A stretch of DNA of 64,000 nt, from assembly GCF_000761485.1 (NCBI RefSeq), contig NZ_JPMX01000044.1:1-64000 (forward strand), read 5' to 3'. The translations under genes and the position numbers were made by a program. Below are positions 57,994 through 61,652 of this stretch, in pieces (the stretch's first letter is position 1; each line of letters begins with the position of its first letter). The notes under the pieces are model-generated. The model was not told the origin of the DNA and ran no database searches. It saw only the letters and a list, made by a program, of their open reading frames with translations. This DNA is from Modestobacter caceresii (lineage in GTDB: Bacteria; Actinomycetota; Actinomycetes; Mycobacteriales; Geodermatophilaceae).

Positions 57994-58998
57994 TCACCTG
58001 ACTCCGGCGAGCCCGGCGGCGGCGGGGAGCCAGTCGATGCGGCCGCCGTGGGCGGCGGTGTACGCCAGGGGCTCGCCGTCCAGCGCCAGCAGGAACCGGG
58101 CCTCCTCCGGGGCCGGCGGCTCGGGCAACCGCTCCCGGACGGCGGGCAGCACCCCCACCCCCTCCTGGGAGACCCAGCGCACCGGCAGCCCGGCGACCAG
58201 CTCGGCGAACGCCTGCTTCGCCGCCGCCGGCAGGTAGGCCAGCACCGCGGTGTGGAAGACGACGACGGTGGCCTCCGCCGGCATCGCGGCGACCAGCCCG
58301 GGCAGCTGCTCGACCAGGTCGCCCCGCCGGATCTCGGCCGGTTCCCGGGCGGCGATCGCGGCCGCGGCGGTGAGCCGGTCGCGTCGCTCGTCCATGCCCG
58401 GCCAGATCAGCGCCTGCAGCCAGGCGACGTCGTCGGGGTCCGCGGGGTCGAGCGGGTTCAGGTCGATGCCGGCTCGGCGGACCACCCGCGGCACCTCCGT
58501 CGGCACCGGCCCGCGCCCGGTCACCGTGCACCGCAGCTGCACGGTGCTGGGAGGGCCGACCCGGGCGCCGGAGTGGTCGTAGCCGTAGCGGTCCGGGTAC
58601 AGGCACAGCCCGGCCGACGCGCCCACCTCGATCAGCGCCAGCGGCCCCGGCAGGCCGGCCAGCACCGGCAGCAGGGCCGCGCAGCGGGCGGCCTCGTTGG
58701 TCTGGGTGGCCCGGGCCAGCATCGTCGCCCGCAGCCGGTCGGCGTCGCCGGTGACCCGCTCGCGCAACTGCGCGCCGTCGGCCGGCGGGCCGCCGTGCAG
58801 GTACTGCAGCGCGCCGAGCAGCAGGTTGGCCTGCCGCTTGGGCCGCGGCAGGGTGCCCAGGAAGGCCAGCACCTCGGCGTCCTCGGCGACCGCGGCCGCG
58901 AGCTCGGCGTACCGCGGCGAGACCGGCGCAGCCTCCACCTGGGCGAACCACCGGTAGTGGTCGGCCAGGTCGGTCAGCTCCTCGTCCAGCGACCTCAT
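57994..58998 (-). CDS. DUF2332 family protein
   Basis: 334 residues. DUF2332 pattern: LADHYRWFAQVEAAPVSPRYAELAAAVAEDAEVLAFLGTLPRPKRQANLLLGALQYLHGG, IEVGASAGLCLYPDRYGYDH and a C-terminal EEARFLLALDGEPLAYTAAHGGRIDWLP. The glycine-rich VGASAGL loop looks like a SAM-binding methyltransferase motif, but no activity is known to me. ATG overlaps the upstream fusion gene as ATGA. Its 3' end lies 54 bases from the start of the broken recombinase, so it marks the core side of the island boundary. Confidence 0.9.
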   Translation of the reverse strand: MRSLDEELTDLADHYRWFAQVEAAPVSPRYAELAAAVAEDAEVLAFLGTLPRPKRQANLLLGALQYLHGGPPADGAQLRERVTGDADRLRATMLARATQTNEAARCAALLPVLAGLPGPLALIEVGASAGLCLYPDRYGYDHSGARVGPPSTVQLRCTVTGRGPVPTEVPRVVRRAGIDLNPLDPADPDDVAWLQALIWPGMDERRDRLTAAAAIAAREPAEIRRGDLVEQLPGLVAAMPAEATVVVFHTAVLAYLPAAAKQAFAELVAGLPVRWVSQEGVGVLPAVRERLPEPPAPEEARFLLALDGEPLAYTAAHGGRIDWLPAAAGLAGVR

Positions 58999-61652
58999 GT
59001 GGTGGTCAGGTCGCGCGGGGCGGTGGCGAAACGGGCCAGGTCGTCGCGGGTCGGCTCCACCAGCACCCGGCCGTCGGGGGTGAGCACCACCGGCGCATCC
59101 GTCTCCTCGACCCCGAGCTCGGCGAGCAGCCGGGCGGCGGCGTCGTCCTCGGCCGGGTCCAGCCAGGTGTGCGGGACCCCGTCCTCGGCCAGCTGGGCTC
59201 GCAGCTCCGTGCTGGCCGGCCAGCGCCGGTCGCCGACCACCCGCAGCCCGCTCGCCTGCCCGATGAGCATCGCCCGGCGCAGCAGGAACGACCGGGTGAT
59301 GACGTCGGCCAGTCCCCGGTCGCGGGTGAAGACGGCGCGCAGCTGCTCCAGGCTGAGCACCAGCACCTCGCCGTCCTCGGCGGCCACCAGCGAGCGCACC
59401 GGCCGCTGCCCGGCCAGCATGTTCAGCCCACCCAGGAACCGCCCCGGGCCGTGGACCGCCACGACCCGCTTGCCGCCGTCCGGGCCGCCGTCCAGCAGCC
59501 CCTCGACCACCGCGACGGTGCCGGCGAGGACGACGAAGAAGTCGAACTCCGCCTGCCCCGAGCGCAGCAGCACCTGCCCGCGGGTGGTGCTCAGCCGGCG
59601 CCCCACCCGCCGCAGCACGGCGGTGTGCACGTCGGACAGCCGTGGCGAGGCGCCGTCCTCCGGTGTCTCGGCGAGACGTTCGCCCGGCAGCACGTCGATC
59701 GCGGGCAGCTGGGCGGCCGGGGAGAGGGTGACCGACGACCGTGCCGGGGTGACCAGCTCGGCCGCCGGCAGCAGGCTGCCGTGGCCGGGCCCGCGCGGGT
59801 CGGAGGTGACCAGTGCGGCGGCGAGCGCCTCGGTGGTGGTCCGGCCGTCGTGCCCGACGCCGTTGACGAAGAACGTCGGGGTGCCCTGCACCCCGCTGGC
59901 CTCCGCACCGGCGACGTCGGCGCGGACCCGGGGCGCGTGCGTGCCGCTGCCCAGCTCCTCGGCGAAGCGGCCGAGGTCCAGCCCGAGCGCGGCGGCGTGG
60001 TCGAGCAGCTGGTCGGCCTCGAGCTGGTCCTGGTGGGCGAAGAGCCGGTCGTGCATCGCCCAGAAGGCGCCCTGGGCACCGGCGGCCTCGGTGGCCTCGG
60101 CGGCGAGCTCTGCGTGCGGGTGGACGTCGGGCAGCGGCAGGTGCCGGAAGACGTAGCGCAGGTCGTCGCCGAACCGGCGGCGCAGCTCCTCGACCACCCC
60201 GGTCGCCCGGCCGCAGAACGGGCACTCGACGTCGCCGTACTCGACCAGGGTCAGCGGCGCGTCGACCGGGCCGCGGAGGTGGTCGACCTCCGGGTCGACC
60301 GGCGGGTCCAGCTGCCGGGGCCCGGCGCTGGCCACCTGGGGCTGACGTCGTCCCAGCGCCCAGAACCAGACCGCGCCCAGCGCTGCCGCCACCACGCCCG
60401 CGGCCAGGACGCCGACCATCGCCTCCTCGCGCAGCACCGCGTCGTCGAAGGCCAGGTCGGCGACGAACAGCGACACGGTGAAGCCCAGGCCGGACAACGC
60501 CGCCCCGCCCCACACGCTGGCCAGCGACACCCCGGGCGGCAGCGAGCCCATCCCGAACCGGACGGCGAGCGTGGACGCCAGCCCGATGCCGACGAACTTG
60601 CCGACGACCAGGCCCACGAAGACGCCGATCGTGACCGGGGAGGTGAGCGCACGGTCCAGCAGCTCGGTGTTGAACTGCACCCCCGCGTTGGCCAGGGCGA
60701 ACACCGGGACGACGACGTACCCGCTCCACGGCACCAGCAGCGCGCCGATCCGCTCGTTGGGCGAGATCGCCCGCTCGACCGAGAGCTTCGCCCGTCGGGC
60801 GAGAGCGACGTCGGGGGCCTGCCGGAAGGCGCGGGCGAGCGTGCCGGCGGACTCCACCTCGTCCCGGCGCGGCCGGTAGGCGCTGACCAGCAGGCCCAGC
60901 ACGACGCCGCCGATGGTGGCGTGCACCCCCGAGGCATGCATCGCCAGCCACATCACCACGCCGACGGCGAAGTAGGCCGGCCCGCGCCACACCTTCAGCC
61001 GGGTGAGCAGCCCGAAGGCGACCACGCACAGCGCAGCGACGCCGAGGGCGACGAGGTCGATGTCGTCGGAGTAGAAGACCGCGATCACGGTGAGCGCCCC
61101 GATGTCGTCGACCACGGACAGCGAGAGCAGGAAGACCCGCAGCTGGGTGGGGCAGCGGGAGCCGACCAGCGCCAGGGCGCCGAGGACGAAGGCCGTGTCG
61201 GTGGCCATCGGGATGCCCCAGCCCTGCGCGCCGGGGCCACCGGCGTTGATCGCGAGGTAGAGCCCCGCGGGCACCACCAGCCCGGCGACCGCGCCGAGCG
61301 CCGGCACCGAGAGCCGGCTGCGCTGGGTCAGCTCCCCCATCGACAGCTCGCGGCGCACCTCCATGCCGATGAGGAAGAAGAAGAACACCATCAGGCCGTC
61401 GTTGACCCAGTGCCGCAGGTCCATGGCGACGGCCATGGAGCCCAGTTCCAGGCTGAGCTCGGTGTGCCACACCCGCTCGTAGGAGTCGCCCCACGGGGAG
61501 TTGGCCCACAGCAGCGCGAGCAGGGTGCCGACGACGAGCAGCGCCGCGCTGGACGCCTCGGTCTGCAGGAACCGGCGGGCCGGGGTGGACAGCTGGGCGA
61601 GCAGGTGACCGGTTCGGGAGGCTCGGCTCGAGGTGCGGGACGGGGACGTCAC
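58995..61652 (-). CDS. NhaA Na+/H+ antiporter fused to DsbA-like, cyclic-nucleotide-binding and glutaredoxin-like domains
   Basis: 885 residues. (1) NhaA-type antiporter, residues about 20-440, with the ion-binding aspartate pair in SVVDDIGAL (D182/D183) and NhaA loops such as VRRELSMGELTQRSRLSVPALGA. (2) DsbA/thioredoxin domain about 460-640 with CPFC at 477-480 and cis-Pro TPTFFVN. (3) CNB domain about 680-790 (QAEFDFFVVLAGTVAVVEG, FLGGLNMLAGQRPVRSLVA). (4) C-terminal 85 residues like the glutaredoxin-type linker of CNB-thioredoxin reductases (ELRAQLAEDGVPHTWLD, DAPVVLTPDG). NhaA-DsbA fusions are known in actinobacteria; the extra two domains are the surprise. The frame is uninterrupted, so it is not an assembly join of separate genes. 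Confidence 0.9.
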   Translation of the reverse strand: MTSPSRTSSRASRTGHLLAQLSTPARRFLQTEASSAALLVVGTLLALLWANSPWGDSYERVWHTELSLELGSMAVAMDLRHWVNDGLMVFFFFLIGMEVRRELSMGELTQRSRLSVPALGAVAGLVVPAGLYLAINAGGPGAQGWGIPMATDTAFVLGALALVGSRCPTQLRVFLLSLSVVDDIGALTVIAVFYSDDIDLVALGVAALCVVAFGLLTRLKVWRGPAYFAVGVVMWLAMHASGVHATIGGVVLGLLVSAYRPRRDEVESAGTLARAFRQAPDVALARRAKLSVERAISPNERIGALLVPWSGYVVVPVFALANAGVQFNTELLDRALTSPVTIGVFVGLVVGKFVGIGLASTLAVRFGMGSLPPGVSLASVWGGAALSGLGFTVSLFVADLAFDDAVLREEAMVGVLAAGVVAAALGAVWFWALGRRQPQVASAGPRQLDPPVDPEVDHLRGPVDAPLTLVEYGDVECPFCGRATGVVEELRRRFGDDLRYVFRHLPLPDVHPHAELAAEATEAAGAQGAFWAMHDRLFAHQDQLEADQLLDHAAALGLDLGRFAEELGSGTHAPRVRADVAGAEASGVQGTPTFFVNGVGHDGRTTTEALAAALVTSDPRGPGHGSLLPAAELVTPARSSVTLSPAAQLPAIDVLPGERLAETPEDGASPRLSDVHTAVLRRVGRRLSTTRGQVLLRSGQAEFDFFVVLAGTVAVVEGLLDGGPDGGKRVVAVHGPGRFLGGLNMLAGQRPVRSLVAAEDGEVLVLSLEQLRAVFTRDRGLADVITRSFLLRRAMLIGQASGLRVVGDRRWPASTELRAQLAEDGVPHTWLDPAEDDAAARLLAELGVEETDAPVVLTPDGRVLVEPTRDDLARFATAPRDLTTT

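What the first reader, a model, noticed from the sequence alone, without database searches (positions are those of the whole stretch)
58995..61652. Four-domain NhaA antiporter with redox, cyclic-nucleotide and glutaredoxin-like modules in one protein
Seen directly: one uninterrupted 885-codon frame encodes an NhaA antiporter (DD pair at 182/183), a DsbA-like domain with CPFC, a CNB-like domain and a glutaredoxin-like tail. Known: NhaA-DsbA fusions exist in actinobacteria, and CNB-glutaredoxin-like modules precede thioredoxin reductases. Inference: here the front module of a CNB-thioredoxin reductase has been transferred to an antiporter, giving a sodium/proton exchanger that could be set by redox state and a cyclic nucleotide.
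Basis: partly seen in the sequence, partly recalled or inferred. Interest (0 to 1): 0.72.

Follow-up and report, generated by a model that had tools for sequence, protein, structure and literature searches.

The report
Sodium–proton antiporter with redox-sensor tail
A soil- or stone-type bacterium makes a salt/acid exchanger whose tail carries a thiol-redox domain and two sensor-like domains otherwise found on redox enzymes, which suggests that its salt and pH balance may be tied to the cell's redox state.

Summary
In detail: one 885-codon gene (58995-61652, minus) encodes NhaA, a DsbA-like domain with CPFC, a CNB-type domain and a glutaredoxin-like tail. It is no one-off: a match spanning all four parts, without internal stop, occurs in 53 of 112 genomes of the host family (counted; Geodermatophilaceae, host Modestobacter), and the host has a second, 52%-identical copy. 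Outside the family it is rare. On the tree of NhaA-DsbA parts, one clade of CNB-bearing forms is rejected, so the module was probably added more than once. Its closest relatives outside NhaA are front ends of TrxR-like flavoproteins; such a gene directly follows the antiporter in 8 of the 22 Geodermatophilus-group genomes that have the four-domain gene. Most likely: a thiol-redox-regulated Na+/H+ antiporter with a CNB-glutaredoxin docking or sensing module. Every functional step is inferred. No description was found in the papers searched. New variant of a known kind.

The parts
58995..61652 (-). whole four-domain NhaA gene, 885 codons, GTG start
   Evidence: orthologues with stop-to-stop frames of 882-967 codons in 18 further genomes of the genus group
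60366..61574 (-). NhaA Na+/H+ antiporter domain, residues 27-429
   Evidence: PF06965 E 2.1e-136; TIGR00773 over cut-off
61104..61109 (-). Asp182-Asp183, the NhaA ion-site aspartate pair
   Evidence: invariant in 50 of 50 rows of alignment A1, as are Asp152 and Lys352
59811..60284 (-). DsbA/Thioredoxin_4-like domain, residues 457-614
   Evidence: Pfam; solved DsbA chains
60213..60224 (-). CPFC, Cys477-Cys480
   Evidence: CxxC in 107 of 111 NhaA-DsbA rows
59253..59633 (-). CNB (CRP-type) domain with its long C-terminal helix, residues 674-800
   Evidence: Pfam match 690-777; models; fold matches
59394..59447 (-). altered phosphate-binding cassette, residues 736-753 (Gly742 in place of Glu)
59022..59252 (-). 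cysteine-free glutaredoxin-like tail, residues 801-877
   Evidence: profile match to 2lqo E 1.2e-6; model; no Cys
57994..58998 (-). downstream DUF2332 gene; its ATG overlaps the antiporter's TGA by 4 bases, so the two are probably translated together (inference)
   Evidence: Pfam; junction; found just downstream of the antiporter in 4 of the 5 named Modestobacter loci

Best explanation
This is an NhaA-type Na+/H+ antiporter with a regulatory tail in the cytoplasm. Step 1 (shown by sequence): the antiporter core keeps its ion-site residues. Step 2 (inferred from topology): the CPFC domain sits at the cytoplasmic face. Step 3 (inferred): its dithiol/disulfide state, set by the cytoplasmic thiol system and perhaps by TrxR-like flavoproteins, changes the exchange rate. 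Step 4 (inferred): the CNB and cysteine-free glutaredoxin-like domains are a non-catalytic dimerisation, docking or ligand-sensing unit of the kind carried by those flavoproteins. The result would be sodium and pH homeostasis tied to redox state.
For: Asp152, Asp182, Asp183 and Lys352 are invariant in 50 of 50 aligned proteins. Reading the model's helices as twelve membrane spans ending near residue 436 leaves no further span in 437-885; residues 1-31 have 5 K/R and no D/E, and acidic loops fall on the other side. CxxC is kept in 107 of 111 NhaA-DsbA proteins and in 45 of 46 that also bear CNB. The module's relatives outside NhaA are flavoprotein front ends. A REC-glutaredoxin-TrxR-like gene directly follows the four-domain gene in 8 of the 22 Geodermatophilus-group genomes that have it (positions). 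In a Nocardioidaceae MAG (L101) a CNB-glutaredoxin-TrxR-like gene is the next gene after a two-domain NhaA-DsbA gene. A CNB-bearing TrxR from a brine-pool metagenome was reported to reduce its thioredoxin with NADPH (PMC6544261, passages). CNB-bearing forms probably arose more than once (AU p 5e-15), which suggests a recurring functional fit.
Against: No transport, redox or binding data were found for any of these proteins. The host has no hit to the REC-glutaredoxin-TrxR-like query on the window's contig (its one hit is on C75), and none was seen next door in the other 14 Geodermatophilus-group genomes among the listed matches. The flavoproteins have no CxxC in their reductase part (0 of 31 rows), so how they would reduce the DsbA domain is open; the authors of PMC6544261 name other cysteine pairs as redox centres. 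Four of 111 NhaA-DsbA proteins have lost both cysteines, so a redox role is not universal. Relative domain placement is poorly determined (pTM 0.59). CNB and tail evolve faster than the antiporter.
Confidence: 0.5

Rival explanations
1. The antiporter is only an anchor or partner; the DsbA-like domain is an enzyme on cytoplasmic client proteins, steered by the CNB-glutaredoxin part. Exchange itself is not regulated.
For: CPFC and the segment G590-T591-P592 are nearly invariant, as in active DsbA-like enzymes; match to solved DsbA chains.
Against: The antiporter's ion-site residues are invariant, so the core is not a mere anchor; 4 of 111 proteins keep the domain without its cysteines.
Confidence: 0.2
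2. A cyclic nucleotide binds the CNB domain and gates exchange.
For: The CNB fold is certain; the host has one class III cyclase candidate (PF00211 E 5.4e-9); the host's second copy (L002) has a G-E-L and an R-T-A segment.
Against: Gly742 replaces the glutamate, as in 33 of 33 sequences of the clade; the ungapped alignment to 4ev0 puts Pro751 on the arginine (residue roles recalled). Arg753 is invariant in 33 of 33, so another placement or another ligand is possible.
Confidence: 0.12
3. The DsbA-like domain lies outside the membrane and helps oxidative folding there, as many actinobacterial DsbA-like proteins do (recalled).
For: Sequence kinship with solved DsbA-like proteins.
Against: Twelve spans by my reading of the model, positive N-terminus, and CNB and glutaredoxin-like domains (cytoplasmic types, recalled) following without a further span.
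Confidence: 0.05
4. The CNB and tail are baggage of gene fusion with little function.
For: dN/dS 0.17-0.82 for CNB and tail against 0.09-0.38 for NhaA (rough NG86, four pairs); Solirubrobacter L092 lacks the tail; three Blastococcus-group copies are split or interrupted (G164, G177, G183).
Against: The full span is kept in 19 of 23 genomes of the Modestobacter group and 22 of 26 of the Geodermatophilus group; dN/dS stays under 1 in the four pairs; Gly742 and Arg753 are invariant in 33 of 33; probably gained more than once.
Confidence: 0.13

Closest known systems
NhaA Na+/H+ antiporter family (PF06965, TIGR00773)
   Same: Core domain and ion-site residues
   Different: About 450 extra residues with three further domains
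NhaA-DsbA two-domain fusions
   Same: First two domains and CPFC; 56 of the 80 named loci kept and many hits in the class sample
   Different: No CNB or glutaredoxin-like part
CNB-glutaredoxin-TrxR-like flavoproteins (the CNB-bearing ATII-TrxR of PMC6544261 is the studied example found)
   Same: CNB-glutaredoxin-like module in the same order
   Different: Here an antiporter-DsbA precedes the module and no flavoprotein follows; pocket and tail diverged
REC-glutaredoxin-TrxR-like flavoproteins
   Same: Glutaredoxin-like domain; gene next door in some Geodermatophilus
   Different: Response-regulator domain in place of CNB; flavoprotein, no antiporter

Membership tests
NhaA antiporter | over the curated score of the family models | tested here: met
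   PF06965 455.1 vs 23.5 bits; TIGR00773 342.8 vs 254
NhaA antiporter | ion-site Asp pair and membrane lysine (roles recalled from E. coli NhaA) | tested here: met
   D182, D183, K352 invariant in 50 of 50
NhaA antiporter | Na+/H+ exchange | not testable with these tools
   needs a vesicle assay
DsbA-like thioredoxin fold | CxxC and cis-Pro segment | tested here: met
   C477-P-F-C480; G590-T591-P592 nearly invariant; that this Pro is cis is recalled for the family
cyclic-nucleotide-binding domain | fold and family score | tested here: met
   PF00027 42.8 vs 27.5 bits; Foldseek hits to CRP-type proteins, best E 4.6e-9
cyclic-nucleotide-binding domain | pocket glutamate of the phosphate-binding cassette (role recalled) | tested here: not met
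   Gly742; Gly in 33 of 33 of its clade
cyclic-nucleotide-binding domain | pocket arginine (role recalled) | tested here: inconclusive
   ungapped alignment to 4ev0 places Pro751 there; Arg753 is invariant in 33 of 33
glutaredoxin | fold | tested here: met
   family profile finds 2lqo at E 1.2e-6; element order in the model; no fold search of the tail alone
glutaredoxin | active-site cysteine | tested here: not met
   no Cys after 480
CNB-glutaredoxin-TrxR-like flavoprotein | FAD/NAD(P)-binding reductase part | tested here: not met
   no Pyr_redox match in the window protein

The most novel reading that the evidence does not exclude
Antiporter and flavoprotein form one redox circuit: a TrxR-like flavoprotein without a CxxC of its own docks through the shared CNB/glutaredoxin-like module and passes NAD(P)H electrons to the CPFC domain of NhaA, so that the reduced-cofactor level gates sodium/proton exchange, with the remodelled CNB pocket reading a ligand other than cAMP.
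Probability: 0.15. Interest if true: 0.8.

Novelty: new variant of a known kind. Interest (0 to 1): 0.5.

Why it matters
NhaA is a textbook antiporter set by pH (recalled); control by thiol redox state or a reductase partner would be a new kind of input. The probable repeated addition of the same type of module to NhaA-DsbA, with flavoprotein genes next door in some relatives, names a concrete partner to test. The family includes a Geodermatophilus strain described as tolerant of desiccation, radiation and hydrogen peroxide (start of abstract of PMC4119925 in the listing), conditions that stress ion and redox balance together.

Tried and rejected
Chance or frameshift artefact: rejected (53 of 112 family genomes). 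'Unique to this genome': rejected. One origin of CNB-bearing forms: on the NhaA-DsbA tree one clade of the 15 CNB-bearing rows against 41 others is rejected (AU p 5.0e-15); with L066 moved to the others (14 against 42, a set chosen after one search was seen) p is 0.0018. On the CNB-glutaredoxin tree one clade of NhaA-borne modules is not rejected (p 0.232), with long branches meeting (L066 with L092, L035 with L101), so reuse of one NhaA-borne module between lineages, or one gain with several losses, is not excluded. Similar rows were dropped before the trees: 111 to 84, 111 to 56, 71 to 64. L092, which lacks the glutaredoxin-like part, was counted as CNB-bearing. In the domain scripts the tail of the host's second copy (L002/L155) fell under the threshold; it is called four-domain because its match runs over residues 9-875 of the window protein and its tail aligns (31% identity).

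Papers: searches are listings with starts of abstracts (20 of 23, 20 of 56 and 12 of 188 papers shown) and showed no description of this architecture; one passage of PMC3924187 names NhaA without such a fusion; matching passages of PMC6544261 were seen. Only open-licence PMC papers were searched. Foldseek with the CNB-tail model showed CNB-type proteins in the 50 rows shown, so the glutaredoxin kinship rests. Genes around the second host copy were located but not identified. The flavoprotein beside L117 is of another type (Pyr_redox_dim) and is not counted as support.
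Full report
What is there. The frame 58995-61652 on the minus strand is open for 885 codons. Pfam places NhaA at 27-429, a DsbA/Thioredoxin_4 domain at 457-614 and a CNB domain at 690-777, each over its cut-off. The last 80 residues alone match mycoredoxin weakly (E 0.0059), but a profile of 22 such tails finds the solved glutaredoxin Rv3198.1 at E 1.2e-6, and the model shows the thioredoxin-fold order of elements. Cysteines are at 167, 209, 477 and 480 only. The gene's TGA overlaps the ATG of a DUF2332 gene by 4 bases; that gene lies just downstream in 4 of the 5 named Modestobacter loci.

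How widespread. The named relatives make the host a Modestobacter (98% identity to a protein of Modestobacter sp. VKM Ac-2977). Of the 112 family genomes searched, I count a match spanning all four parts without internal stop in 53: 19 of 23 in the host's genus group, 6 of 16 (g6) and 5 of 23 (g2) in two Blastococcus groups, 22 of 26 in the Geodermatophilus group (g4), and one further genome (G243). Three more (G164, G177, G183) have split or interrupted copies. The host has a second copy (C40, 52% identity) and a plain NhaA (C67). Outside the family: G395 alone besides the host among 394 genomes sampled from the class at E 1e-110, and none besides the host among 396 sampled from the phylum at E 1e-170. 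The named scan kept the 80 best of 571 relatives: 23 carry all four domains (L085 split; the tail of L090 was found and missed at the threshold), one has NhaA-DsbA-CNB without the tail (L092, Solirubrobacter) and 56 are two-domain. The one four-domain case there outside Actinomycetota is a Promineifilum MAG (L144; Chloroflexota by recall), whose DsbA-like domain lacks both cysteines.

Origin of the tail. The closest relatives of the CNB-glutaredoxin part outside NhaA are front ends of TrxR-like flavoproteins. Identity to the window's module is 31-44% in 19 of 20 such rows and 27% in the other; the modules of the second host copy and of the Geodermatophilus proteins are no closer, at 35-40%. 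On the tree of NhaA-DsbA parts the CNB-bearing forms need three changes and one clade is rejected (p 5.0e-15; p 0.0018 with L066 moved out). On the tree of the CNB-glutaredoxin part one clade of NhaA-borne modules is not rejected (p 0.232). Repeated addition is the simplest reading; spread of an NhaA-borne module between NhaA lineages, or early gain with losses, stays possible.

Neighbours. In 8 of the 22 Geodermatophilus-group genomes with the gene (G057, G140, G186, G187, G189, G194, G205, G206) a REC-glutaredoxin-TrxR-like gene follows directly on the same strand (positions; domains); none was seen next door in the other 14 among the listed matches. In a Nocardioidaceae MAG (L101) a CNB-glutaredoxin-TrxR-like gene is the next gene after a two-domain NhaA-DsbA gene, so the parts of the fusion lie side by side. 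In Actinotalea (L109) a REC-glutaredoxin-TrxR-like gene lies beside NhaA-DsbA on the other strand. Of the 80 named loci, 9 had a TrxR-type hit in the flanks fetched (up to 8 kb a side), 8 of them next to the antiporter; one of the 8 (L117) is another flavoprotein type. The window's contig has no hit to the REC-type query; the host's one hit is on C75.

Pocket and cysteines. At the CNB glutamate position the window clade has Gly in 33 of 33 sequences; other NhaA-borne modules have Glu in 15 of 17 and flavoprotein-borne ones in 15 of 21. Arg753 is invariant in the window clade (33 of 33), against 2 of 17 and 0 of 21. The ungapped alignment to 4ev0 puts Pro751, not Arg753, on the residue I recall as the pocket arginine, so the arginine is unsettled. 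The host's other copy has G-E-L and R-T-A. The genome holds one cyclase candidate, but nothing shows that this protein binds a cyclic nucleotide. The module is free of cysteine in 32 of 33 sequences of the window clade. The reductase part of the flavoproteins has no CxxC in 31 of 31 rows (29 distinct, some incomplete); a canonical TrxR has one (recalled).

Mechanism. Reading the model's helices as twelve membrane spans leaves none after residue 436; with the charge pattern and E. coli NhaA as recalled precedent, the three extra domains are cytoplasmic. Ion-site residues are invariant in 50 of 50 proteins, and CxxC is kept in 107 of 111 NhaA-DsbA proteins, 45 of 46 of those with CNB. The likeliest reading is a redox-regulated antiporter with a docking or sensing module of the flavoprotein type. 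A CNB-bearing TrxR was reported to reduce its thioredoxin with NADPH, its authors naming other cysteine pairs as redox centres (PMC6544261, passages); reduction of a thioredoxin-fold partner is thus plausible. Every step from redox state to transport is inference.

Selection. Rough NG86 estimates against four Modestobacter-group orthologues give dN/dS 0.09-0.38 for NhaA, 0.16-0.36 for DsbA, 0.38-0.63 for the linker, 0.19-0.60 for CNB and 0.17-0.82 for the tail: the tail is constrained, but less than the core.

Verdict. Observation confirmed, interpretation partly supported. A new variant of a known kind: known domains on a known NhaA-DsbA base, in a four-domain form that is widespread in one bacterial family and that I did not find described in the searches made.

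Noticed in passing
L166:6006-7928, L167:6253-8190, L168:6482-8422: A further Geodermatophilus NhaA-DsbA type whose DsbA-like domain has lost both CxxC cysteines and which ends soon after that domain.
   Followed up: partly
L144:5946-8516: Promineifilum MAG with a four-domain protein whose DsbA-like domain lacks both cysteines and the G-T-P segment.
   Followed up: no
L101:8043-11867: Two-domain NhaA-DsbA gene followed by a CNB-glutaredoxin-TrxR-like gene in a Nocardioidaceae MAG: the pieces of the fusion lie side by side.
   Followed up: partly
L012-L035, L086-L088, L091, L095, L101, L109: CNB- and REC-fronted TrxR-like flavoproteins have no CxxC in the reductase part (0 of 31 rows) but often one Cys in an EAxxC segment.
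   Followed up: partly
G164:C3:88328-90917, G177:C1:3187741-3190339, G183:C8:15693-18293: Four-domain genes split into two or three frames or interrupted by one stop; sequencing error and decay not told apart.
   Followed up: no
window 57994-58998: DUF2332 gene overlapping the antiporter's stop by 4 bases; also next door in 4 of 5 named Modestobacter loci.
   Followed up: partly
L117:9876-11246: A flavoprotein with a Pyr_redox_dim domain directly follows NhaA-DsbA in Ornithinicoccus halotolerans.
   Followed up: no
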